From Terriglobales bacterium (GTDB lineage Bacteria; Acidobacteriota; Terriglobia; Terriglobales; Acidobacteriaceae), in contig JAOAPE010000012.1 of assembly GCA_025462725.1 (NCBI GenBank), positions 483,942 through 547,941 of the forward strand: a stretch of DNA of 64,000 nt. The letters are read 5' to 3'. Shown here one piece after another: positions 26,813 to 41,743 of this stretch; within the stretch, counting starts at the first letter, position 1, and each line of letters starts with the position of its first letter. The notes under the pieces are model-generated. The model did not search any database. It saw only the letters and a list, made by a program, of their open reading frames with translations, and was not told where the DNA came from. The translations under genes were made by a program, and so were the position numbers.

Positions 26813-26902
26813 GGAGAGATGGCCGAGTGGCTGAAGGCGCACGCTTGGAAAGCGTGTTTAGGGGAAACTCTAACGTGGGTTCGAATCCCACTCTCTCCGC
26901 CA
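26813..26902 (+). tRNA. tRNA-Ser (GGA anticodon)
   Basis: A complete 90-base gene with an encoded CCA end. The acceptor arm GGAGAGA pairs perfectly with TCTCTCC. The anticodon loop reads TTGGAAA in a CACGC/GCGTG stem, giving anticodon GGA. A long variable arm (about TTTAGGGGAAACTCTAA) marks a class II serine tRNA, and the T arm is TGGGTTCGAATCCCA. Its 3' end is the attachment site of the genomic island that follows. Confidence 0.96.
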
Positions 26903-26904
26903 TA
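26879..26904. other. Attachment site attL in the tRNA-Ser 3' end
   Basis: The last 24 bases of tRNA-Ser plus two more form a 26-base sequence repeated perfectly at 41718-41743, and for 21 bases at 41601-41621. It covers the T-loop and acceptor stem, the usual target of tyrosine integrases. Confidence 0.85.
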
Positions 26905-27021: not shown

Positions 27022-27447
27022 ATGTTCGGAAGGAAGTGTACTTTATACATTCGGGTAGTATTGCCGGACGGCACTCGCCGCTATTGCAAGCCGGTTTACG
27101 CCCGAAAAGGTGAATTAAAAGCCGGCTATGCTTTCATCGAAAAAAAGCGACTCACACCGGTGGCTCATACCATGCCAGATATGCAAATGATGCTGGCAAG
27201 CGCATTTGGCAAGACTTAGGCGGGGATCCCTACGTCGCTTTGGACAGATTCGACGAGATTGAACGCGAGTTGCGGGACGCTTCACGTTCAGCCGCCAGAG
27301 GGCGGCCAATTCTAGAGCGAGAGACCATTGCAGATGCCAGCCGAACGTACCTCGAGCGCGTCAAGATTAAGCATCAGCGGAACACGAAAGTCGCATACAG
27401 TCGATATCAGAGGCTTTTCCTCGAGCACATCGGTGCTTCAATCACTT
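27022..27447 (+). pseudogene. Tyrosine integrase, N-terminal part, frameshifted and truncated
   Basis: The ATG follows GAGGAGAAG. The first frame reads MFGRKCTLYIRVVLPDGTRRYCKP and continues to YAFIEKK. After a run of seven A (27140-27146) the similarity moves to another frame: THTGGSYHARYANDAGKRIW, then DPYVALDRF and a core-binding region TYLERVKIKHQRN. This matches the N-terminal half of phage-type integrases common in Acidobacteria. The frame stops at 27447, before any catalytic R/H/Y residue, so the enzyme is dead. It is the likely original integrase of the island. Confidence 0.75.
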
Positions 27448-27465
27448 AAACCAAGATACAGTCCA

Positions 27466-29201
27466 ATGCTCAATCTCGAAGGAGGAGTTAAGCCTCGGTG
27501 CGCCGTCTACGCCCGCTACTCCTGCGATATGCAACGCCCGGCGTCAGCCGAAGACCAAATTCGTCAATGCAGAGACAAAGCCGTCCTCAAAGGCTGGCCG
27601 GTGCTCGACGAACATCTATATAAGGATTGAAGCCATTACTGGCGGGACTAGATAAGCTGCTCGAAGCTGCTCAGCAATACCCACGTCCTTTCGATTGCGT
27701 ACTCATTGATGACACTTCTCGGTTAGGCCGTCACGTTCCAGGAACTCTCAGCCTTACCGAGCAACTTGCTTATGCCGGCGTGTTCTTGTACTTCGTAACG
27801 CTTGACTTAGATACACGCGCTGCAAGTGCACGAACTATTCAAACAATAAGCGCCTTGATGGACGAGCAGTACAGCAAGTCGTTGTCTGACAAAGTACATA
27901 GAGGGCAACGGGGTCGGTTCCTCGCAAAATGCAACCCGAGCGGCAGGTGCTACGGCTACACCAATGTTCCCATACTTCATCCGACGAAGATGGCTGAATA
28001 TGGGAGACCGGCGGTAATCGGGTTGAGCAGAAGATTAATGAAAGTGAAGCCGCGATCGTGCGGCACATCTTTGAAATGTACGGGGCAGGTTCCAGCTATA
28101 CAACTATCGCCAAGAAACTGAACGGTGCTGGTACTGCTTCACCTCAGCCGCCGCGTAGCAGAACCGTTCGTGGATGGCACATGTCCACTATTCGGGACCT
28201 CCTATTCAACGAACGATATCGGGGTGTGGTGATATGGAACCGACTCCAAACGTTTCGAAATCCTCACACCGGAAAAAAGAGCGGTCACTGCGCACTGAAA
28301 ACCACTGGGAGCGAATCGAAAATTCCTGCGCTGAGAATTGTTTCGGATGAGCTTTGGACAAAAGCTCACGAGCAAAACAAGCGAATGAGCGAGAAGCATG
28401 GGCCTAAGCGTCTTGGGGGAATGAATCGCGCGCAAACGGTCTATCTTTTTAGCGGGCTCCTGGAATGCGGATTGTGCGGTACCAACATGACCATTGTGGC
28501 CAACAGCGGGAAGTACGCTCGTTACGGATGTCCAAATCAGCGCTTCAAAGGGGCTGTGTGAAAACTCAAACAGAATCGTATATCACAGTCTTGAATCACA
28601 ACTGATTGACGCCATTCGCAAAAATCTAGTGAATCCGCAGATGAAAGAAAACATCTGCTGTTATTTCGAGGAACAACTGAGCAAACCATTGCAGACAGAA
28701 CAGAATTACCTACTAACTGCCGGCGGTCAACGCAGCGGACTTCTTTCCGAGCGGGCTCAACTGCTAAAACAAGCGGACAACATCACCCGTGCCATAGCCG
28801 AACACGGGCTTTCAGACCTTCTATCCGAACAGTTGAGGATGATTGAACCGAAGCTGAGGGAAATTGCGCGACGTCTAGAGGCGCCCGCACCTACGCTCCA
28901 GTTTGACTTTTCGAGGAAGGAGATTGAAGAATTCGTAGAGCGTGAGGCATGGGACTTTTCCGAGGCTCTCACAGCGGATCGCTCTGCGGCACGCCAAGAG
29001 ATACAGAAGCGAATCCGCAAACTGGTCTTAACGCCAAGTAAACAAAAAGGCGTTACCTTCGATGTGACAGGTGATGTCCAGCTCCTTGCGGCTCCAGATG
29101 ATGGAATGCTGAGCAATTCTTTGGGGAGAATTGCTCAGCATTACAACGGTAGTCGTGTGAGCCTTGAAGGTGTAGTGCTGCACTCTTCTTTTTCTTTTTG
29201 A
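27466..29201 (+). pseudogene. Large serine recombinase, decayed by frameshifts
   Basis: Four frames in series give one recognisable protein. The N-terminal resolvase domain has the catalytic serine in YARYSCDMQRPASAEDQ; after a gap near 27630, FDCVLIDDTSRLGR and MDEQYSKSLSDKVHRGQRGR continue it. A lost G near 28021 moves to the frame with RHIFEMYGAGSSYTTIAKKLN and the recombinase zinc-ribbon (LLECGLCGTNMTIV ... YGCPN). The last shift near 28555 leads to a coiled-coil C-terminus ending at 29201. At least three breaks make it non-functional. Confidence 0.8.
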
Positions 29202-29693: not shown

Positions 29694-31568
29694 ATGAATG
29701 GAGCAATGAAATTATTGCTCGTTCTCCTGAGCACATTCACGCTGGCCAGCGTGGTTTTAGCCCAGCAGCAGAACGAGACAAAATCAGCACCCGACGCACT
29801 GCTTCGATTGTTGCAGTCGAAAGGAGTTTTATCCGAAGAGGAGGCCAACTCGATCAGCCACGCCTCTTCGTCGGCGGACTATCAACAGCGGCTGGCAAGA
29901 ATGCTTTTGGGCAAGGGCGTGATCACCCAAGAGGAATACAACCAGACAATGTCGGAGTCGGAGTCTGTCAGCGCGAAGGACGCCACTAGGACGACAAACG
30001 TAGCCCAGCAATCGAATTCCAAATTGGTAAGTACGGCCATGATCACGCCAGCTACTACCCAATCGATTGCGGCGACTCAGGCGCAAACATCCTCTAAGCC
30101 GCAGGAACCCACTGTGATCCCGGCAATCGCCCCTTTGCGTTTTCTCCCAATCACTGTTCCGAAAAAAGGCGGTCTATTGCCGGACATAAAATTGGGAAGC
30201 GGGGCAACTGTGCGGCCGTACGGATTCTTCAAGGCCAGCGCAGTTGAACAAACCACGCTCAATGGTGGTTCGACATTTGGCAGCAATGATTTTCCGGATG
30301 GACCATTACTTCTGGGCGACACAGGCCCCGATGCAGATCCTCAATTCCATATCCGCAACCGCATGTTGCGCCTAGGCGTAGATTTTGAGTGGCCGGATCC
30401 ATCGAAAAACCTGACGTTGACCGGAAAACTCGAATTCGATTTCGAAGGCAACTTTACGAACGTCAACAACCGCAACATCAGTGCCAACCGCTCCTCGCAG
30501 CCGTCTTTGCGATTGGGATGGGTGCGACTCGACGCAAAGCTCAAGGGATTGCCGTGGTTCGCACAATTTGGCCAGGATTGGTCAATCTTCGGATCCTCAA
30601 CTCTGATGGACATCTTCGAAACTACGGGCTTCGGCTTCGCCCAGGGCAACTTGTATGAACGCATGCCAATGTTCCGCACCGGTGTTCAGTTCGGGAAAGG
30701 TGATCTCAAGGTGCAGCCCGAAGTTGCAATAGCGTTGTCTTCATTTGGCGAGCCGGGCTTGGACGTAGATCAGCGCACTCGTTTTGGCAGCCGCGTGGGT
30801 CCTGAAAGTAATCAACCCGAAGCACAGGGCCGCATCGTCTTCCAATACCCGCTCTCGAAAGCGCCTGGGGTTCTTCCAGCTCAGATCATCTTCAGCTTTG
30901 ACCACGCACAGCGAAGGGAAATCGTGCCCGCCGCCAATCTGGCAGGATTACCGCTTGCCGTCCGTAATGCCTTCCCCACCGGCGTGGCGCTCACCTCAGA
31001 CCGCAATGCGTGGACTGCAGAAGTGCAACTCCCAATGCCTTCGGTGACGGTGGTTGGAAAATACTATCGCGGAGGCGACCTGCGCTATTTCTTCCAAGGA
31101 CAATTCAATGATGTGTTTACCGACCTTGGTGGCGCAGCGCCGATTGGTACAGCGCTCAGCTTCGCCAATCGCAGCATCCCCTTCGGATTAGTGGGAACGA
31201 CAGTTGTTGCAGGCTCAATCCAGCCAATACGCGGACAGGGAGGTTTCATTCAGATTGGAATCCCGCTTTCGCGCGTCTTTCATGCTGATCCGGCCGGCCG
31301 AGATTCTGGTTGGACCACGTACTTTACTTACGGGGTCGACTCCGCCTTCGCAAGAGATGTCGTTCGCACGGGTGGCAACGGATTGCTCCGTACAGATCAC
31401 GCTTCGGCGCAATTGCGTTACAAACTAAACAAGTGGATGAGCTTCGTGCAAGAAACCACATATCTGGATACGCGAACCGCCGATGCGGTCACGAAACTTT
31501 ATCGTGGACTTCCAGTGCACACGGTACATGCATGGAGGAATGAGTTCGGCACGATTGTCACGTTCTGA
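29694..31568 (+). CDS. Outer-membrane porin (OprP/DcaP-like)
   Basis: A 624-residue protein from ATG 29694, which has AGGAGG seven to eight bases upstream. A signal peptide (MKLLLVLLSTFTLASVVLAQ) is followed by two related helical repeats (LLQSKGVLSEEEANSIS and LLGKGVITQEEYNQTM), a Thr/Gln linker, and from about residue 165 a beta-barrel region (VRPYGFFKASAVEQT, LRLGVDFEWPD, KGLPWFAQFGQDWSIF) that ends with a terminal aromatic (GTIVTF). This fits anion or small-solute porins. Directly upstream of fdh, it may admit formate or related acids; that role is inferred. Confidence 0.8.
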   Translation: MNGAMKLLLVLLSTFTLASVVLAQQQNETKSAPDALLRLLQSKGVLSEEEANSISHASSSADYQQRLARMLLGKGVITQEEYNQTMSESESVSAKDATRTTNVAQQSNSKLVSTAMITPATTQSIAATQAQTSSKPQEPTVIPAIAPLRFLPITVPKKGGLLPDIKLGSGATVRPYGFFKASAVEQTTLNGGSTFGSNDFPDGPLLLGDTGPDADPQFHIRNRMLRLGVDFEWPDPSKNLTLTGKLEFDFEGNFTNVNNRNISANRSSQPSLRLGWVRLDAKLKGLPWFAQFGQDWSIFGSSTLMDIFETTGFGFAQGNLYERMPMFRTGVQFGKGDLKVQPEVAIALSSFGEPGLDVDQRTRFGSRVGPESNQPEAQGRIVFQYPLSKAPGVLPAQIIFSFDHAQRREIVPAANLAGLPLAVRNAFPTGVALTSDRNAWTAEVQLPMPSVTVVGKYYRGGDLRYFFQGQFNDVFTDLGGAAPIGTALSFANRSIPFGLVGTTVVAGSIQPIRGQGGFIQIGIPLSRVFHADPAGRDSGWTTYFTYGVDSAFARDVVRTGGNGLLRTDHASAQLRYKLNKWMSFVQETTYLDTRTADAVTKLYRGLPVHTVHAWRNEFGTIVTF

Positions 31569-31744
31569 ACGTTGTTTGCGACTGACCACCCCGCGTTTGA
31601 AGGCGAATGGCACGCACGCCGATGCGGCTGCGAATTAGCTCGAGAGAGGGCAACCGGCTATCAGCGTAGGCATCATAGCCGGAAAGCACACCCTTATGTT
31701 TGCTGGCATTGGGGGTGTCCAGAATCTTGCCTTGGAGAGTCACA

Positions 31745-34700
31745 ATGATCAAGGAACTTATCTCAAGCTGGCCGGTGATTCAGCAAATCAGAAATCGATC
31801 AGACGGAACTGGTTTGGAAGTAATGACCGAAAGGACCCGCCATCTCCAGCCTCGCACGGTCGACGCCCAGGTCGCGCGGTCGGTATGTCCTTACTGCGGC
31901 GTTGGCTGCGGCCAACTCGTTCATCACAAGGATGGGAAGCTGATCTCCATCGAGGGTGATCCAGATTCGCCGGTCTCACGCGGGCGTCTTTGCCCCAAGG
32001 GCTCGGATACCCACGAACTCCACACCCATCCGGGGCGCCTGAAAAAAGTGAAATATCGCCGGCCGTATTCGCGACGATGGGACGAGCTCGATCTCGAGAC
32101 TGCAATGGACATGGTCGCAGATCGGGTATGGGAATCACGCGAGCGCACGTTTGTAGAAAAAGAGAACGGCGCGACGGTGATGCATACCCTCGGCATATGC
32201 CATCTTGGCGGAGCCACGATGGACATCGAAGAAAACTACTTGATACGCAAGCTGTTCACCGGTGGGCTAGGAATGAGTTGCATCAGCAACCAGGCCCGTA
32301 TATGACATAGCTCCACTGTACCCGGTCTGGGTACATCATTCGGGCGCGGCGGCGCTACCACTGCGCAACAGGACCTTTCGAACGCCGATGCGATCCTGAT
32401 CATGGGATCGAATATGGCGGAAAACCATCCCGTAGGTTTCCAGTGGGTGATCGAGGCCCGCGAGAAGAACAAAGCGACGGTGATTCACGTTGACCCACGT
32501 TTTACGCGGACCTCTGCGATGGCGGACATCTGGGTTCCCCTACGCTGTGGGAGCGATATAGTGTTCCTCGGGGGACTGATCCACTACGTCCTCGAGAACG
32601 AAAAGTATTTTCGTGAATACGTTGTGCATTACACCAATGCGCCTACTCTCCTGCGAGAGGATTTCCGCGACACGGAGGACTTGGACGGCTTCTTCTCCGG
32701 ATGGGACGCGGAGAAAAAACTATACGATCCGACTACCTGGCTCTATGAAGGCAGTCCGGAAAAGGGAGCGCTCTTCGGAGGGCCGCTACCCAAGGTTGAA
32801 AAGGACCAGCAGCAAGCCGGACACGAAAAACGCGGGATCGTAGGTCCGGGACAGACCGCCGAAACTGCCAAGCAGGATTTCACCTTGCGGCATCCTCGTT
32901 GTGTGTTCCAGGTTTTGAAAAAGCACTTCGCGCGTTACACGCCTGAGATGGTAGAGCAGTGCTGCGGCGTGCCGAAGGAATTGTTTCAAAAAGTCGCGGA
33001 AGCCTATTGCTCAGCTTCCGGGCCGGACAAGACCGCAGCAATCTGCTATGCCCTCGGCTGGACACAACACTCCAAGGGCGTGCAGATCATCCGCGCCGCG
33101 TCCATCCTACAAATGCTGTTAGGAAACATGGGGCGTCCAGGCGGAGGCATTATGGCCCTTCGCGGCCATGCCTCGATTCAAGGCTCGACTGATGTCGCCA
33201 CGCTATACGACATTTTGCCCGGCTATCTGCCCACGCCGATCTTCAACAGAGACGCCCGCAGTCTGAAAGACTACATCACATATAACAAGGCTAAAACGGG
33301 AGTGTGGTCGGATTTCGACAAGTACATCATCAGTTTTCTCAAAGCCTATTACGGCGATTCTGCGACCGCGGAGAACGATTTTTGCTTCGACTATCTTCCG
33401 CGAGTTACCGGAGACCACTCACATTTCGGTTTTTGGTTGGACATGGCTGACGGCAAGGTGGAAGGCCTGTTTCTGATGGGACAAAACCCGGGAGTGGGCG
33501 GTCCTAATGCCCGTCTGGAACGCAAGGCATTGGCCAAACTGAAGTGGTTAGTGGTGCGCGACATGGTGGAAGTCGAACCCGCTTCCTTCTGGTACAAGTC
33601 GCCGGAGGTCGAACGCGGTGAGCTTAGTCCCGAGACCGTTGCGACCGAAGTATTTCTCTTCCCTGCTTCCGGTGTGTCAGAAAAGGCCGGCACCTTTACC
33701 AACACGCAACGCCTGTTGCAATTTCATGAAAAAGGCGGCGATCCTCCAGGTGATTCAACCAGCGATACTTGGTTCATGGTTCACTTGGGCCGTCGCCTGA
33801 AAGCGAAGGCTGCGGCTGATCCGCGGCCACGGAATGCTCCGCTTAATGCTCTCAAATGGGACTATTCGGTGGCCGGCAAGGACGCCGAGCCCAAGGTCGA
33901 AGAGGTCTTGCAAGAGATCAATGGCTGGACCACTGCCGATCATCGGCTGATCTCAGGGTCCTCAGAGCTACAGGCGGATGGTTCCACGGCGTGCGGCACC
34001 TGGATCTACTCCGGTTGCTATCCGGAGCCGGGAAGGAATCGACCGAATGAACGGCAATCACGCGACCTTTACGGACACGGATGGGGATTTGCCTGGCCAT
34101 CAGACAGGCGCATCCTCTATAACCGCGCCTCCGCGCGTCCGGACGGAAAACCTTGGAGCGAGCGAAAGAAACTGGTTTGGTGGGATGAACAACAAAGACA
34201 ATGGACTGGTCTTGATGTGCCGGACTTTTATCGCGACAAGCCTCCCGATTACAAGCCGCCGGAAGGAGCGGTTGGTGCCGCGGGAATTGGCGGTGATCAA
34301 CCGTTCATCCTCCACCCTGACGGCGTAGCCTGGCTGTTCGTCAGCGCTGGACTAAAGGATGGCCCTTTACCGACCCATTACGAACCGCTGGAATCCCCAC
34401 TTCCTAATCCTTTATATAAGGGCAGCAACTCGGATCCAGCCGCGATGAAACGAGAGCGGCCCGACAATCCCTACGCGCGCTCGCCTGGAGATCCGAGCTT
34501 CCCCTATGTCCTCTCGACTTATCGTCTCACTGAGCATCACACAGCGGGAGGCATGAGTCGAACTCTCAGTCACCTGGCGGAACTGCAGCCCGAGCTGTTC
34601 TGCGAAGTTTCACCGGAGCTGGCGTCTGAGATTGGTTTGAAGCACGGGGCTTTCGCAACCATCACTTCACCTCGCGGCATTGTAGAGGCACGAGTCATGG

Positions 34701-34945
34701 TTACAAATCGCCTGAAGCCGCTGTCGGTGGAGGGCCGTTCTATCCACCAGATTGGTATCCCATTCCACTTCGGCACCAACGGATTGGTCACGGGTGATTC
34801 AGCCAACGATTTGTTACCCATCTCCGAGGAGCCGAATGTTCGCATCATGGAAGCCAAAGCGCTGGTGTGCGACATCACTCCCGGCAGACGTCCGCGAGGA
34901 AAAGCAGCGCTGGAGTTCCTCGCTAGAAAGATGGAGGCGGCATGA
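31745..34945 (+). CDS. fdhA: Formate dehydrogenase catalytic subunit, selenocysteine-containing
   Basis: A molybdopterin enzyme oxidising formate to CO2. One reading frame covers 1,066 residues if UGA 32303-32305 is read as selenocysteine (residue 187, in NQARI-U-HSS). Without readthrough it would split in two. A [4Fe-4S] site (C48, C51, C55, C83) precedes it; HSSTVPGLGTSFGRGGATT after Sec and GSNMAENHPVGFQW fit formate dehydrogenase alpha subunits. ATG 31745 has GGAG upstream. No twin-arginine signal is visible, so the enzyme is probably cytoplasmic. Its ATGA junction couples it to fdhB. Confidence 0.92.
32303..32335 (+). promoter_or_regulatory. Selenocysteine UGA codon with SECIS hairpin
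   Basis: UGA at 32303-32305 is followed after 11 bases by a perfect 7-bp stem, TGTACCC (32317-32323) and GGGTACA (32329-32335), closing a GGTCT loop. Spacing and the GGUCU apex match the SECIS of Escherichia coli fdhF, the element SelB binds. Confidence 0.88.
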
Positions 34946-35787
34946 GCACTGCGACAAATCTCCAGGGCCACTCCGGCCAGACGACCGCGTTCTTGACCGA
35001 TTCGACATTGTGCATTGGTTGCAAGGCCTGCGAGGTAGCGTGCAAGGAGTGGAATGGCGTCAGTGCAGACGGATTCGACTGGTCGGGTTTCTCTTACGAC
35101 AACACCGGCGCGGTTGGGCACTCAACGTGGCGGCATGTGAAATTTGTAGAGGGCAATCCTCAACCGGGTTTCGGCGGAAATGCCGGCGAGGCCATTTCAT
35201 GGGAATTTTCCTCCGACGTTTGCAAGCACTGTGAAGTAGCCGGATGCTTGGAGGCATGTCCGACTGGCGCGATCACGCGCATGGAATTCGGTGCTGTGTA
35301 CGTGCAGCCGGACGTATGCAATGGCTGTTCATATTGCGTCGTAGCTTGCCCCTTTGGCGTGGTGCAGAAGAATGTTGAAGACGGCCGCGCATTCAAGTGC
35401 ACCTTCTGTTCTGATCGACAGCGAGTTGGGTTGGAACCCGCTTGCGCAAAAGCCTGTCCCACGCAATCCATTAAATTCGGAGAGATCAACCAGTTCCGCA
35501 ACGAAGCACAAGATCGCCTGCAGGAATTGAAGGCGCGCGGAATCGAGGATGCGACAGTGTATGACCCGCAAGATACCAGCGTGGGCGGGATCCATTCGAT
35601 CTTCCTCGTTCGCGGTGACCCGCGCACCTACAATCTTCCGCCCAAGCCGGAAGTGCCAACCATCTATCTCAAAGACGGATGGCGCTCAGCGGGAATCGCC
35701 GCCGGGATGATGGTAGTCGCAGGTCTGGCCGCATTCTTGAGTACTCCGGCTAAGAATGGAAAACGTCTGGAAGGAGCCGGCAGGTGA
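34942..35787 (+). CDS. fdhB: Formate dehydrogenase iron-sulfur subunit
   Basis: A 281-residue electron-transfer subunit with four [4Fe-4S] cysteine groups: CIGCKACEVAC, CKHCEVAGCLEAC, CNGCSYCVVAC and CTFCSDRQRVGLEPACAKAC. A single C-terminal membrane helix (AAGMMVVAGLAAFLS) anchors it, as in E. coli FdnH. It takes electrons from FdhA to the membrane subunit. The start overlaps the fdhA stop (ATGA) and its own stop overlaps the next gene (GTGA), so the three are translated as a unit. No Tat signal is seen. Confidence 0.93.
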   Translation: MSTATNLQGHSGQTTAFLTDSTLCIGCKACEVACKEWNGVSADGFDWSGFSYDNTGAVGHSTWRHVKFVEGNPQPGFGGNAGEAISWEFSSDVCKHCEVAGCLEACPTGAITRMEFGAVYVQPDVCNGCSYCVVACPFGVVQKNVEDGRAFKCTFCSDRQRVGLEPACAKACPTQSIKFGEINQFRNEAQDRLQELKARGIEDATVYDPQDTSVGGIHSIFLVRGDPRTYNLPPKPEVPTIYLKDGWRSAGIAAGMMVVAGLAAFLSTPAKNGKRLEGAGR

Positions 35788-36869
35788 GAGAGCCCTTAAA
35801 ACGTGAGCAAGTTCCAGACGACGCGCGTGAAGCACGGCTCGTGAGCATTCGCAAAGAAGCAGAGAAAAAGGGCCGATTGGTGGAACAAGGAGTTAGGCCT
35901 GTGGGCGCTCCGTTTCCTAAGGCATCGCCCGAAACTGGCTATTACGGCATTCCCCTATTGAAGGAGCCGCAGTGGACTTGGCAGGTTCCCATTTATTTCT
36001 TTGTTGGGGGTGCGTCTGGCGCTGCCGCGCTCATAGGCGCGTTGGCCAAAGTGATCGGCAAAGATGAGCGCCTCGCGCGCGACGCGCGTCTGGTTGCGGC
36101 TGGCGGTGGAATCATTTCGAGCGGATTGCTGATCGCAGACCTTGGCAGGCCTGAGCGTTTTCTCAACATGTTGCGCGTGTTCAAGATTCAGAGCCCGATG
36201 TCCGTCGGCGCGTGGGTGCTGGCATTCTTCAGCAGCTCTTCTGGAGCCGCAGCTTTTGCTCAGCTTGTTGAACAAAAGATCGACATCGGCCCCATCCGCG
36301 TCTTGGGGAACGTCGCCGAAGGATTCTCTGCGGCAATGGGATTGCCGCTTGCCACCTACACAGGAGTGCTCATCGGCGCGACGGCCATTCCCGCGTGGAA
36401 TCACAACATCAAATCACTTCCCATACATTTCGGAATGTCAGGACTGGGATCGGGGGTTTCCGTTCTGGAATTAATGGGGAATGACGACAGCCCGGCGCTC
36501 AACATGCTCGGGATCGGCGCGTCTGCAGTAGAAAGCTATGAGGGTTTCCATCTGGAATTTAGGCGCGATCCCCAGGTGAATCGTCCGCTGAAACATGGAC
36601 TCACGGGTTGGACGACACGATTAGGCGGCTTGCTTTCAGGACCCGTCCCTTTGGCGCTGCGCCTGATCGCCAGTGCCTCGGGATCGCGACGCTTGCGACG
36701 TGCCGCTGCTTGGTCGAGCATCGCCGGTAGCATTTTGACTCGAGTCGGCTGGATCTATGCAGGTCGCGAGTCGGCTCGAGACTGGCGCATCCCTTTGCAG
36801 ATAGAACAACCGCCATCGACGCCGGAGCTGGCATCGGAGCGAGACGTTCCGCAGATGCGAGCAGGTTGA
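35784..36869 (+). CDS. NrfD/PsrC-type membrane subunit of formate dehydrogenase
   Basis: A 361-residue polytopic protein of the NrfD (polysulfide reductase) family, with a soluble start and then about eight hydrophobic segments (QVPIYFFVGGASGAAALIGALA, GGIISSGLLIADLGRPERFLNML, PMSVGAWVLAFFSSSSGAAAF). The GRPERFLNMLRVFK stretch is characteristic. NrfD proteins exchange electrons with menaquinone or quinone, so it should replace the cytochrome b subunit of E. coli Fdh-N. Start is GTG 35784, overlapping the fdhB TGA. The membrane quinone as electron acceptor is family knowledge. Confidence 0.88.
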   Translation: MREPLKREQVPDDAREARLVSIRKEAEKKGRLVEQGVRPVGAPFPKASPETGYYGIPLLKEPQWTWQVPIYFFVGGASGAAALIGALAKVIGKDERLARDARLVAAGGGIISSGLLIADLGRPERFLNMLRVFKIQSPMSVGAWVLAFFSSSSGAAAFAQLVEQKIDIGPIRVLGNVAEGFSAAMGLPLATYTGVLIGATAIPAWNHNIKSLPIHFGMSGLGSGVSVLELMGNDDSPALNMLGIGASAVESYEGFHLEFRRDPQVNRPLKHGLTGWTTRLGGLLSGPVPLALRLIASASGSRRLRRAAAWSSIAGSILTRVGWIYAGRESARDWRIPLQIEQPPSTPELASERDVPQMRAG

Positions 36870-36932
36870 GGTGCGTACTAAGACGATGGCGGCATCGTCT
36901 GCTCGGATCACGCGTTCAAGGAGGATGATTAT

Positions 36933-38213
36933 ATGTCTTCAGCAGGCCCAGTGACAGCAAACAGGGGCAACTTGCCGAACCGCTGGGCTATTGCGGCGGG
37001 GGGCGTGCTCATGCAGATTGCGCTCGGTGCGGTATACGCCTGGAGCGTATTCCGCATTCCGCTGACGAAGGCCTTTGGCTGGACGATCACGGAAGTCACA
37101 TTCACTTTTACGGTGAGCATCCTGATGCTCGGTTTTGCCGCCTTTGCCGGCGGGCTCTGGATGCGGAAAGTGGGGCCGCGGAAGGTAGCCCTGACCGCCG
37201 CGATCTTCTACGGAGCCGGCGTCTTCCTTGCGAGCCTCTCTGCAGGCCGCCTTTGGTGGCTGTATTTCTCGTACGGCTTTCTAGGGGGAATCGGCTTGGG
37301 ACTGGGCTACATTGTTCCCGTTGCAACGCTGGTCAAGTGGTTCCCCGATAAGCGGGGCATGATCACGGGTCTCGCCGTGGCAGGGTTCGGCGCCGGAGCG
37401 CTCATTACGGCGCCAATCGCGACGAGGCTGATTGCGAGCGTCGGCGTACTGAAGACTTTCGCTATTCTTGGGATCGGGTATTTCATTGCCGTCACGTTCG
37501 GCGCGTTGTTCATGCAAGATCCACCCCCAGGATATGTCCCACCCGGGTGGACACCAACCGCGGCTGAGAAGCGAGAACGCGCGGCACAAGACTTCACCCT
37601 GAGCGAAGCATTGCACACCCGGCAGTGGTACGCATTATGGGCGCTCTTGTTTCTGAACACATCGGCGGGTATCTCAATCATTTCACAAGCGGCGCCGATG
37701 GCCCAGGAGATCACGGGAGTGAGCGCCGTGACCGCGGCGGGAATGGTAGGAATCATCTCGATTGCAAACGGATCGGGCCGCTTTTTATGGGCTTGGTTTT
37801 CTGACTTAGCCGGACGTCGCTGGGTGTTTCTGTCGATGTTTCTCATTCAGGCGGTGGTCTTTTTTGTGATGCCACGCGTGACCACCTTCGCGTTGTTTAC
37901 CACCCTCGCGTTCATTGTTCTGCTTTGTTACGGAGGTGGGTTCGGGACGATGCCGGCATTTGCTGCGGATTATTTCGGAACGAAGGACGTTGGGTCCATC
38001 TACGGGCTTATGCTGACGGCATGGGGCTTTGCCGGAGTGTTAGGGCCAGTATTGATCGCCACAATTCGGCAACGCACTGGAGCGTACAGCGGGGCTCTCA
38101 CCGTGATTGCATTCATTGTGCTGGTCTCTGCAATCATTCCGCTAATCATCCGTCCGCCTGCGAGCGGAGCTGCACCGGCAAGGACCAGGGAACCTAGCCC
38201 ACGAGCGGCTTAG
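36933..38213 (+). CDS. OFA-family MFS transporter (oxalate/formate antiporter-like)
   Basis: A 426-residue, 12-helix major facilitator. GAVYAWSVFRIPLTKAFGW, the loop GLWMRKVGPRKVAL and PVATLVKWFPDKRGMITGLA match the OxlT-like oxalate:formate antiporter family. An AGGAGG site lies 8-9 bases before ATG 36933. It follows the fdh operon in the same direction, 63 bases on. The natural inference is import of formate or exchange of formate with another acid for the cytoplasmic dehydrogenase. No oxalate-degrading genes (frc, oxc) are in the window, so the counter-ion is unknown. Confidence 0.87.
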   Translation: MSSAGPVTANRGNLPNRWAIAAGGVLMQIALGAVYAWSVFRIPLTKAFGWTITEVTFTFTVSILMLGFAAFAGGLWMRKVGPRKVALTAAIFYGAGVFLASLSAGRLWWLYFSYGFLGGIGLGLGYIVPVATLVKWFPDKRGMITGLAVAGFGAGALITAPIATRLIASVGVLKTFAILGIGYFIAVTFGALFMQDPPPGYVPPGWTPTAAEKRERAAQDFTLSEALHTRQWYALWALLFLNTSAGISIISQAAPMAQEITGVSAVTAAGMVGIISIANGSGRFLWAWFSDLAGRRWVFLSMFLIQAVVFFVMPRVTTFALFTTLAFIVLLCYGGGFGTMPAFAADYFGTKDVGSIYGLMLTAWGFAGVLGPVLIATIRQRTGAYSGALTVIAFIVLVSAIIPLIIRPPASGAAPARTREPSPRAA

Positions 38214-38217
38214 AATT

Positions 38218-38282
38218 GCGAGAGGTGGCGAGATGGCTGAGCATAAATTCAGGGTGAGAATAGGTTCGATCTACCTCCGCAA
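38218..38282 (+). pseudogene. Degenerate tRNA-Ser copy
   Basis: GAGAGGTGGCGAGATGGCTGAG resembles the 5' third of a serine tRNA (GGAGAGGTGGCCGAGTGGCTGAAG); after a deletion of the anticodon arm, CAGGGTGAGAATAGGTTCGA and TACCTCCGC match a variable arm, T loop and acceptor end. It cannot fold fully. It begins five bases after the transporter stop and marks an internal border of the island. Confidence 0.5.
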
Positions 38283-38404: not shown

Positions 38405-38690
38405 AAAATTAAGGGAAGTCGTCCCGAGTCGCGTAATCTTTTGGCCATGCAACCCGCCTGTCGGAACTTCGAGTATTTGGTCCTTCACATGAATGCAGAT
38501 TCGCCCCTGTAGAGTCTGTATCGAAATTCTACCTTCAGCTTTGTGCTCCCCTATGCGTGTGTGTTGGCCTTCATCAAAATAAGAATGGTACGGAAATCCT
38601 GTTGCTTAACCAGGGTTTTCGAACTCCGTCCGGTTACCCGGTGCCAAGACTCTTTGGTCCGCAACTGTTCTATTTCTTTTGAAAGATCGG
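38405..38690 (-). pseudogene. Decayed cupin-domain gene
   Basis: The minus strand reads LSKEIEQLRTKESWHRVTGRSSKTLVKQQDFRTILILMKAN, hits a stop, then continues in another frame with EHKAEGRISIQTLQGRICIHV and a degraded end. This resembles the intact cupin at 39940-40353 (ILMKAN versus ICMEKG, then EHKAEGRISIQTLQG versus EHHADGTISVQVLKG). The two were probably members of one family. The break near 38560 and loss of the C-terminus make it non-functional. Confidence 0.6.
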
Positions 38691-38819
38691 ACTGCAACAC
38701 AGGGTCAGCCAAGCCGGGGAGCCGGGTTAGATGTGCATGGCTTTCAAAACAATCGGAGGCTGGGTGGTTCCATACTTGTACCTCCATCGGTAACCTAGTC
38801 GTGCGCATTGTTCTTGGTA

Positions 38820-39511
38820 TCGACGATCTTCGTCCCGATGGGATGGTTTTGGGCTTCATTGGAATAGCTGTTGTGTTGCTTTCATGGATTTTTGCACATT
38901 ACATCTCATGGTTTTTTCCTCGCGCGTTACAGCATGTACAGAAGGCAGTCACTCATCCTGTCATGCTGCTCACTCTCGACAGGCTTGCACCTCGTGAGTA
39001 CTACACCTCTGGCCAAACGGAAAGATGCCTGCTCGCGAGGACTGGAAGCAGTTAGCTGCTGACACTTCAAGGATTACAGACTCAAAGTCACTGGGTTGGT
39101 GGAGAACCCGGTAGAGCTTACTTTAGAAGATCTGCGATTGCTCGGTGTGGAAGAGAACATCACCATGCACCATTGCATCAGCTTATAGAGCACGTTAAGC
39201 CGCTCCCATCGGCGGGAGTGGTCGCATTTTATTCCTTTGGCGGCTCACTTTATGGAGACCTCTACTATGACACTCAGACCATTACGAATGTGCTCAAGCC
39301 ACAGTGTCTTCTGGCGTTCTCCATGAACGGCGCTCCGCTTCGAGAAGAATATGGTGTTCCTCTGCGATTGCGGGTAGAAAACCAGCTAGGCTACAAGATG
39401 GTGAAGTGGATTGAGCGCATCGAATTCGTTGCCTCAGAGAAAATCTTAGGCGAGGGGGAAGGCGGGATCAACGAAGATGATGAATACTTCGATCTGTTGC
39501 CCAACATCTAG
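38820..39511 (+). pseudogene. Molybdopterin oxidoreductase of the sulfite-oxidase fold, decayed
   Basis: Three frames make one protein. First a membrane segment (DGMVLGFIGIAVVLLSWIFAHYISWFF) followed by a HPVMLLTLDRLAPREYYT linker. After a shift near 39060, DYRLKVTGLVENPVELTLEDL and ITMHHCIS carry the conserved Cys that normally binds molybdenum. About 15 residues are then lost, and LIEHVKPLPSAG ... YGVPLRLRVENQLGYKMVKWIERIEFV runs to an intact stop. It matches membrane-anchored sulfite-oxidase-family enzymes. Two frame breaks and a deletion show it is dead. Confidence 0.75.
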
Positions 39512-39939: not shown

Positions 39940-40353
39940 ATGACAAAGGAAGGATTTACCGAAGGCGGCACGATGCAGCAGGACTTCGCCCAATTTGATC
40001 TTGCCCGTGAGGTGATTGATTCGGAGCGGACGAAACCTTGGCAGAACGGTCATACGGCCAAGACCCTCTTCAAGAAAGCAGACTTTAGAATGGTGCTGAT
40101 ATGCATGGAAAAAGGTTCCATTTTGAAGGAGCATCATGCTGACGGCACCATCTCCGTGCAGGTTTTGAAAGGATCGATACTCTTCATTGCCCAAGGAGAG
40201 ACGCACACTCTGCAGACAATTAGTGTTGTGGCCCTCGGCGGGTCAATAAAGCACCAAGTCGAAGGGCTAGAGGACTCCGCGTTTCTATTGACCATCTCCT
40301 GGCCAGATGAACAGAAGCTTCTGCAAATGAAGCATCGTGGTTACGGACGTTAG
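39940..40353 (+). CDS. Cupin-domain protein
   Basis: A 137-residue single-domain cupin. The barrel motifs are KGSILKEHHADGTISVQVLKG (first box, with two His) and the weaker second box TISVVALGGSIKHQVEG with one His. A GGAGAGG site lies six to eight bases before the ATG, and the frame is whole, unlike its neighbours. A metal site of three His is plausible. Small cupins of this type have varied roles, so function is unknown. It is the only intact gene in the tail of the island. Confidence 0.7.
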   Translation: MTKEGFTEGGTMQQDFAQFDLAREVIDSERTKPWQNGHTAKTLFKKADFRMVLICMEKGSILKEHHADGTISVQVLKGSILFIAQGETHTLQTISVVALGGSIKHQVEGLEDSAFLLTISWPDEQKLLQMKHRGYGR

Positions 40354-41600: not shown

Positions 41601-41621
41601 GAATCCCACTCTCTCCGCCAT
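41601..41621. other. Second partial copy of the tRNA-Ser attachment sequence
   Basis: The 21 bases GAATCCCACTCT...CGCCAT match the tRNA end exactly (26883-26903). It lies 97 bp before the 26-bp copy, suggesting two successive insertions at the tRNA, the inner one now lost or reduced. Confidence 0.75.
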
Positions 41622-41717
41622 TTTTCTTCCGCTATTTTGGTTTGGTAGAGGTCCCTCGGCTCGCTGCGCTCGCTCGGGATTTCGGCGCGCGGCTCAGACG
41701 CCGCGCAAACGCCTCAA

Positions 41718-41743
41718 GTTCGAATCCCACTCTCTCCGCCATA
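41718..41743. other. Attachment site attR
   Basis: A perfect 26-bp copy of the tRNA-Ser 3' end (26879-26904), including TTCGAATCCC and CTCTCCGCCA. The upstream bases (CAA rather than GGG) break the tRNA T stem, so it is not a tRNA. The pilin gene ends 15 bases further on. Confidence 0.88.

What the first reader, a model, noticed from the sequence alone, without database searches (positions are those of the whole stretch)
29694..38213. Portable formate-oxidation module: porin, Sec-Fdh, NrfD subunit and OFA transporter
Four functions stand in line in one direction inside a tRNA-bound island: an outer-membrane pore, a three-subunit dehydrogenase and an oxalate/formate-family transporter. FdhA and FdhB lack a visible Tat signal, so the active site should be in the cytoplasm, where imported formate is needed; the neighbouring transporter fits. 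This would give the host formate as an electron source through the quinone pool. The combination within a mobile element is the most unusual system in the window.
Basis: partly seen in the sequence, partly recalled or inferred. Interest (0 to 1): 0.8.

Follow-up and report, generated by a model that had tools for sequence, protein, structure and literature searches.

The report
Mobile formate-respiration gene cassette
A soil acidobacterium carries, between repeats of a tRNA gene, a set of genes that should let it take up a small organic acid, most likely formate, and feed its electrons to respiration; the enzyme is of a known kind, but the four-gene core has moved between places in related species and its transporter belongs to a group that recurs beside several unrelated formate-oxidising enzymes.

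Summary
Between a tRNA-Ser gene and a 26-nt copy of its 3' end lie a DcaP-like outer-membrane porin, a selenocysteine formate dehydrogenase (fdhA, in-frame UGA with a covarying SECIS hairpin), fdhB, an 8-helix NrfD/PsrC subunit and an MFS transporter. The mobile unit is fdhABC-MFS (about 31650-38222) without the porin: same-genus species carry it at two other sites, one of them empty in a sister species. The island's own recombinase is broken. The transporter fails both oxalate/formate models, passes the SfMCT monocarboxylate model and lacks OxlT's second cation (Lys355 is Trp), so it is not an oxalate antiporter. Formate remains the best substrate guess, because its clade recurs beside three unrelated FDH types, and twice beside acetate-CoA ligase. 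No Tat signal occurs on FdhA or in 80 homologues, but FdhB's Arg-rich tail leaves sidedness unproven. The Sec machinery (SelB, tRNA-Sec) is encoded elsewhere, and the host already has another FDH. The FDH complex type is known (Rhodococcus equi). New points: a selenoprotein respiratory cassette that moves within a genus, and a testable MFS formate-importer clade.

The parts
26813..26902 (+). tRNA-Ser(GGA), integration target
   Evidence: ARAGORN and Rfam
26879..26904 (.). attL-like repeat, 26 nt (3' end of the tRNA)
   Evidence: exact repeat
27328..29201 (+). large serine recombinase broken into four ORFs in frames 1/0/2/0 (27328-27630, 27627-28121, 28058-28561, 28494-29201)
   Evidence: Resolvase, Recombinase and Zn-ribbon domains split across frames
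29694..31568 (+). DcaP-like outer-membrane porin; not part of the cassette that moves in the genus
   Evidence: signal peptide and C-terminal Phe; profile match to DcaP 6eus E=0.003; homologues beside ActP-AcsA, CstA, glcE/F-like genes
31650..38222 (+). conserved cassette (left edge approximate) shared with two other species of the genus at other sites
   Evidence: DNA alignment 31726-38222 to G001, right edge just past the MFS stop in all three; patchy similarity left to about 31650 read by eye
31745..34945 (+). fdhA, formate dehydrogenase alpha, 1066 aa, Sec at 32303-32305
   Evidence: NF041513 and TIGR01553 above cut-off; TGA=U frame open
32317..32335 (+). SECIS hairpin, 7 bp, GGUCU loop
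   Evidence: covariation in 43 sequences
34942..35787 (+). fdhB, 4Fe-4S subunit with one C-terminal TM helix
   Evidence: Pfam Fer4_11; best PDB match FdnH 1kqf_B
35784..36869 (+). fdhC, NrfD/PsrC-type quinone-reacting membrane subunit, 8 TM
   Evidence: PF03916; AF2 pLDDT 88.7; Foldseek best match PsrC 2vpw_C
36933..38213 (+). SfMCT-type MFS monocarboxylate (probably formate) transporter
   Evidence: NF049980 441.6/320 bits; Arg kept, OxlT Lys355 replaced by Trp
38543..39511 (+). gene remnants (weak MFS fragment; PF00174 molybdopterin-oxidoreductase fragment)
39940..40353 (+). small cupin-like ORF
   Evidence: ORF only, no Pfam hit
41601..41621 (.). extra 21-nt partial copy of the att repeat
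41718..41743 (.). attR-like repeat, 26 nt

Best explanation
A formate-respiration cassette. Shown by sequence: four co-directional genes for a UGA/Sec molybdo-(or tungsto-)FDH alpha subunit, an iron-sulfur subunit with a tail helix, an NrfD/PsrC subunit and an MFS carrier with a monocarboxylate-type site; the unit has occupied different sites in the genus and here sits in a tRNA-Ser island behind a carboxylate-type porin. Inferred: the porin lets small carboxylates cross the outer membrane; the MFS carries formate in (probably with H+); FdhA oxidises it to CO2, probably in the cytoplasm; electrons pass FeS(FdhA) to FdhB to FdhC and reduce (mena)quinone, feeding the aerobic chain. Sec is inserted by the host's own SelB and tRNA-Sec, so the cassette works only in hosts with that machinery.
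For: FDH family, UGA and SECIS covariation. Sec machinery on other contigs. NrfD fold. No RRxF[LIV] in 80 homologues, and none in the window's N-terminus, which has no strong hydrophobic core. Relocation: 86% DNA-identical cassette beside the his operon in G001, elsewhere in G003, with the G003 his site empty. Lower synonymous divergence than backbone (pS 0.37-0.51 against median 0.61, n=14, Mann-Whitney p=0.004). MFS: Tyr119, Asn276, Arg280, Tyr331 and Phe335 of SfMCT kept, Lys355 of OxlT replaced by Trp (PMC6573034, PMC10070484). MFS near this FDH in five loci of Acidobacteriota, Verrucomicrobiota, Actinomycetota and Myxococcota, and, in loci picked by the MFS alone, beside FdhF/YdeP enzymes (4), one with FdhD and one with oxalate decarboxylase, and beside a TIGR01591 FDH plus DUF1641 pair (1). 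MFS-FDH co-occurrence in 61 relatives: Fisher p=8e-6, 2e-4 with the genus collapsed. Chthoniobacterales locus L050 has MFS, a Porin_O_P porin, fdhABC and selBAD-like genes together.
Against: NCBIfam names the transporter family after an L-lactate transporter. In two loci the clade adjoins acetate-CoA ligase, and about half or more of its loci have no FDH neighbour. In a 396-genome phylum sample the genomes with the closest MFS lack this FDH. The porin is beside the cassette in this genome only. FdhB's tail is Arg-rich in nearly all homologues, which by the positive-inside rule argues for the opposite orientation. Nothing has been tested experimentally.
Confidence: 0.68

Rival explanations
1. 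The MFS carries L-lactate (or another C2-C3 monocarboxylate) and is only a genetic neighbour of the FDH.
For: Passes the NF049980 SfMCT 'L-lactate' cut-off and keeps the SfMCT carboxylate site; sister loci lie beside acetate-CoA ligase.
Against: No lactate-oxidising gene recognised beside any inspected member; repeated adjacency to three FDH classes across phyla.
Confidence: 0.18
2. The FDH complex faces the periplasm (cryptic Tat route or hitch-hiking), as in E. coli FDH-N; the transporter would then not supply its substrate.
For: Arg-rich FdhB C-tail; a degenerate Tat-like motif and one positive signal-peptide prediction reported for the R. equi homologue (PMC13332983).
Against: No RRxFL in 80 homologues and none in the window; SignalP negative for R. 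equi (PMC13332983); the long, cation-rich loops of FdhC are on the same side as its termini (indirect).
Confidence: 0.22
3. Oxalate-linked unit: oxalate decarboxylase elsewhere in the genome makes formate in the cell and the MFS exports formate or exchanges acids, while FDH burns the formate.
For: OxdC is over cut-off in this genome, G001 and G003, not found in G002 and G004 (draft genomes); it co-occurs with the MFS (p=2e-4; 6e-3 with the genus collapsed) and lies beside an FDH-like gene and the MFS in G008.
Against: OxdC is not in the island; this genome's OxdC shows no signal peptide by eye; the transporter lacks the second cation needed for oxalate.
Confidence: 0.15
4. No transfer: an ancestral locus that was merely rearranged; the island repeats are incidental.
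For: FDH orthologues (66-75% aa) occur in other genera of the family; the G001-G003 cassette identity is close to their backbone identity.
Against: Exact 26-nt repeats, recombinase remnant, empty his site in G003, lower pS than the backbone between G000 and G001.
Confidence: 0.2

Closest known systems
Rhodococcus equi 103S membrane-bound FDH (FDH-alpha with UGA, FDH-beta, NrfD; PMC13332983)
   Same: Same three subunits, Sec, beta with one TM helix, NrfD instead of cytochrome b gamma, no clear signal peptide
   Different: There sel genes and tRNA-Sec adjoin it; here they are on other contigs, and an MFS transporter and porin adjoin instead; island setting
E. coli FDH-N (FdnGHI, 1kqf)
   Same: FdhA passes TIGR01553; FdhB is closest to FdnH
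   Different: No Tat signal; NrfD in place of the cytochrome b gamma subunit
Desulfovibrio FdhAB (1h0h, 6sdr)
   Same: 1h0h alpha is the best PDB match of FdhA
   Different: Soluble periplasmic pair without NrfD
Polysulfide reductase PsrC (2vpw_C)
   Same: NrfD fold, 8 TM model
   Different: 20% identity, different partner enzyme
SfMCT L-lactate transporter (6g9x)
   Same: Above NF049980 cut-off, same carboxylate residues
   Different: Leu28 to Val, Leu145 to Phe, Trp at the Cys/Lys355 position; FDH neighbours
OxlT oxalate:formate antiporter (8hpj)
   Same: Family-level kinship, Arg272 and Asn268 kept
   Different: Lys355 is Trp; OxlT groups in another clade (100/100); below TIGR04259 cut-off
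DcaP porin (6eus)
   Same: Only PDB profile match of the porin family, E=0.003
   Different: Very remote; below the Pfam DcaP threshold

Membership tests
NF041513 / FDH-N-type selenocysteine formate dehydrogenase | full-length profile match above curated cut-off | tested here: met
   1598 against 1400 bits; TIGR01553 968 against 814
NF041513 / FDH-N-type selenocysteine formate dehydrogenase | in-frame UGA with SECIS and host Sec machinery | tested here: met
   UGA 32303, covarying GGUCU hairpin, SelB, tRNA-Sec(TCA)
E. coli-type FDH-N | Tat signal on the alpha subunit | tested here: not met
   no RRxF[LIV] in 80 homologues or the window N-terminus; SignalP/TatP not available
E. coli-type FDH-N | cytochrome b gamma subunit (FdnI) | tested here: not met
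   third gene is NrfD/PsrC fold
NrfD/PsrC family | 8 TM NrfD fold | tested here: met
   PF03916 60.7/25.8 bits; Foldseek 2vpw_C E=2.6e-6
OxlT / oxalate:formate antiporter | TIGR04259 and TIGR00890 cut-offs | tested here: not met
   170.7 against 335 and 247.5 against 374.9
OxlT / oxalate:formate antiporter | Arg272 and Lys355 for the two carboxylates | tested here: not met
   Arg kept, Lys355 is Trp (PMC10070484)
SfMCT monocarboxylate transporter | NF049980 cut-off and Tyr119/Asn276/Arg280 site | tested here: met
   441.6 against 320; residues kept
SfMCT monocarboxylate transporter | L-lactate as substrate | not testable with these tools
   needs uptake assays
tRNA-site genomic island | tRNA 3' end repeated at the far end | tested here: met
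   26 nt, 26879-26904 and 41718-41743
tRNA-site genomic island | intact integrase | tested here: not met
   recombinase split over four ORFs in different frames
tRNA-site genomic island | simple empty site in relatives | tested here: inconclusive
   sequence after this tRNA differs from G000 in all four relatives, none shows the G000 right flank directly
DcaP porin | Pfam PF19577 | tested here: inconclusive
   one of eight homologues at E=0.16; 6eus E=0.003 by profile

The most novel reading that the evidence does not exclude
The MFS subfamily around this protein (SfMCT-like site with Trp at the OxlT Lys355 position) is an unrecognised formate importer that has been recruited repeatedly to unrelated formate dehydrogenases (NrfD-anchored Sec-FDH, FdhF/YdeP type, NuoG-like FDH with DUF1641) across at least four phyla, and here travels with a selenoprotein respiratory complex as a self-contained outer-membrane-to-quinone formate-scavenging kit usable only by Sec-competent hosts.
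Probability: 0.42. Interest if true: 0.6.

Novelty: new variant of a known kind. Interest (0 to 1): 0.42.

Why it matters
Formate is a common soil intermediate, and how aerobic soil bacteria take it up and respire it is poorly described. The locus predicts a specific MFS formate importer that databases name 'L-lactate' or 'oxalate/formate', and shows a respiratory selenoprotein complex moving within a genus, which limits transfer to hosts that keep the Sec machinery. It also makes the unsettled sidedness of the NrfD-anchored FDH directly testable.

Tried and rejected
Oxalate:formate antiport by the MFS: rejected on cut-offs and Lys355. Porin as part of the travelling unit: rejected, absent from all four same-genus relatives. 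Regulation by the sigma-54 activator beside the G001 copy: dropped, since the activator stays at the his locus in G003, where the cassette is missing. MFS-FDH coupling as a phylum rule: not supported. Positive-inside analysis of FdhC: charge higher on the terminus side, but loop lengths differ, so only indirect. PDB sequence search with FdhC alone or its profile found nothing; only fold comparison worked. Porin structure was not predicted: no permitted homologue set. Promoter scan: no more sigma-70-like sites than shuffles.

Full report
Observation. The porin-like gene runs 29694-31568, fdhA 31745-34945 with an in-frame TGA at 32303, fdhB 34942-35787, fdhC 35784-36869 and the transporter 36933-38213, all on +. 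tRNA-Ser(GGA) lies at 26813-26902, and 26 nt of its 3' end recur at 41718-41743, with a 21-nt copy at 41601, so the stretch is about 14.8 kb between att-like repeats.

The enzyme. FdhA passes NF041513 (1598 bits, cut-off 1400) and TIGR01553 and is closest among solved structures to D. gigas and E. coli FDH. The UGA is read as Sec: the following hairpin has the GGUCU loop in 67 of 79 distinct sites found, and in a 43-row alignment the third-codon-position pair covaries through all four Watson-Crick types, with 0 of 500 shuffles reaching the observed covariation score. SelB and tRNA-Sec(TCA) are on other contigs of this genome. FdhB resembles FdnH with one tail helix. FdhC is an NrfD: the model (pLDDT 88.7) has eight TM helices and its best fold match is PsrC. 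The same kind of complex has been described in silico in Rhodococcus equi (PMC13332983), so the enzyme itself is not new.

Sidedness. None of 80 homologues has RRxF[LIV] before the first cluster motif, and the window protein has no strong hydrophobic core there. This favours the cytoplasm. Two facts keep it open: the FdhB tail is Arg-rich in nearly all homologues, and the R. equi authors discuss a degenerate Tat-like motif and got conflicting predictions. The loop-charge pattern of FdhC is only indirect support.

The transporter. By curated models it fails TIGR00890 and TIGR04259 (oxalate/formate) and passes NF049980, SfMCT. It keeps the SfMCT residues Tyr119, Asn276, Arg280, Tyr331 and Phe335 but has Trp where OxlT has Lys355, the residue that binds the second carboxylate of oxalate; members of the OxlT clade in related bacteria keep Lys (PMC6573034, PMC10070484). 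So it should carry a monocarboxylate. The substrate is best judged from neighbours. With the same FDH type, relatives lie near fdh genes in a Sulfotelmatobacter, a Chthoniobacterales, two Actinomycetota and an Anaeromyxobacter locus. In loci picked by the transporter alone, it lies beside FdhF/YdeP-type enzymes in four (one with FdhD, one with oxalate decarboxylase), beside a TIGR01591 FDH with a DUF1641 protein in one, and beside acetate-CoA ligase in two; the others show no such link. The DUF1641 pair resembles the ForCE menaquinone-linked FDH of PMC8808070. An oxalate/formate antiporter gene close to an fdh has been mentioned before for a syntroph (PMC11201294). I conclude formate, with other short monocarboxylates not excluded.

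Mobility. In G001 (same genus) fdhABC and the MFS (86% DNA identity) sit between hisA and a sigma-54 activator gene; in G003 these two genes are neighbours without the cassette, and the four genes lie elsewhere. The homology ends just after the MFS stop in all three genomes; on the left it is firm from 31726 and patchy to about 31650. The porin is outside it and absent from G001-G004. Between G000 and G001 the cassette's synonymous differences (0.37-0.51) are lower than those of 14 backbone genes (median 0.61; p=0.004), which suggests exchange after the species split; codon bias and the single backbone contig limit this. In G000 the cassette is in the tRNA-Ser island, whose recombinase is split over four ORFs in shifting frames. 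The sequence after this tRNA differs from G000 in all four relatives, with no simple empty site.

The porin. It has a signal peptide and ends in Phe. Its family profile finds only DcaP (6eus, E=0.003). Homologues in other genera adjoin a DUF485-like ORF, an ActP-type SSF symporter and AcsA (L203), CstA (L202) and glcE/glcF-like genes (L201), all carboxylate uptake or oxidation. A porin of another family (PF07396) stands directly before fdhA in the Chthoniobacterales locus, together with the MFS and selBAD-like genes, so the porin-FDH-transporter grouping has arisen at least twice. It is nevertheless rare: among 95 fetched FDH loci only L050 has one of the two porin types, besides the window itself.

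Host context. The genome also has an oxalate decarboxylase (C56:277587) and a second FDH with a NuoG-like N-terminus next to an OxdC remnant. Formate oxidation is thus not new to the host; a quinone-linked Sec enzyme with its own importer is. In 61 relatives the MFS clade co-occurs with this FDH (p=8e-6; 2e-4 with the genus collapsed) and with OxdC (2e-4; 6e-3), but in a 396-genome phylum sample the closest MFS genomes lack this FDH.

Verdict. Real and partly as read. It is a known enzyme type in an unusual mobile package with a transporter whose likely function is misnamed in databases. Relatives are draft genomes (G001 83% and G003 78% complete), so absences there are soft; positive placements are not.

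Noticed in passing
G000:C51:377773-381224 (L236 7773-11224): Second formate dehydrogenase (TIGR01591 839 bits, NuoG-like N-terminus) directly after a truncated oxalate decarboxylase; a degenerate-looking OxdC also lies at G000:C70:166511-167633.
   Followed up: partly
L223, L224, L228, L230, L200: The MFS clade stands next to FdhF/YdeP-type FDHs, or to a TIGR01591 FDH plus DUF1641 protein, in other Acidobacteriota; in L200 also near an oxalate decarboxylase with a Tat-like signal.
   Followed up: yes
L050:6916-20706: Chthoniobacterales locus with MFS, Porin_O_P, fdhABC, an extra 271-aa gene, selB, selA-like and selD-like genes together: the full functional kit in another phylum.
   Followed up: partly
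window 38543-39511: Remnants: weak MFS fragment and a PF00174 molybdopterin-oxidoreductase fragment, apparently decayed cargo.
   Followed up: no
window 41601-41743: Two partial tRNA-Ser 3' repeats 121 bp apart, suggesting more than one integration event at this site.
   Followed up: no
L138:4878-7061: GAF-GAF-sigma-54 activator divergent from the cassette in G001; it stays at the his locus in G003 where the cassette is absent.
   Followed up: partly
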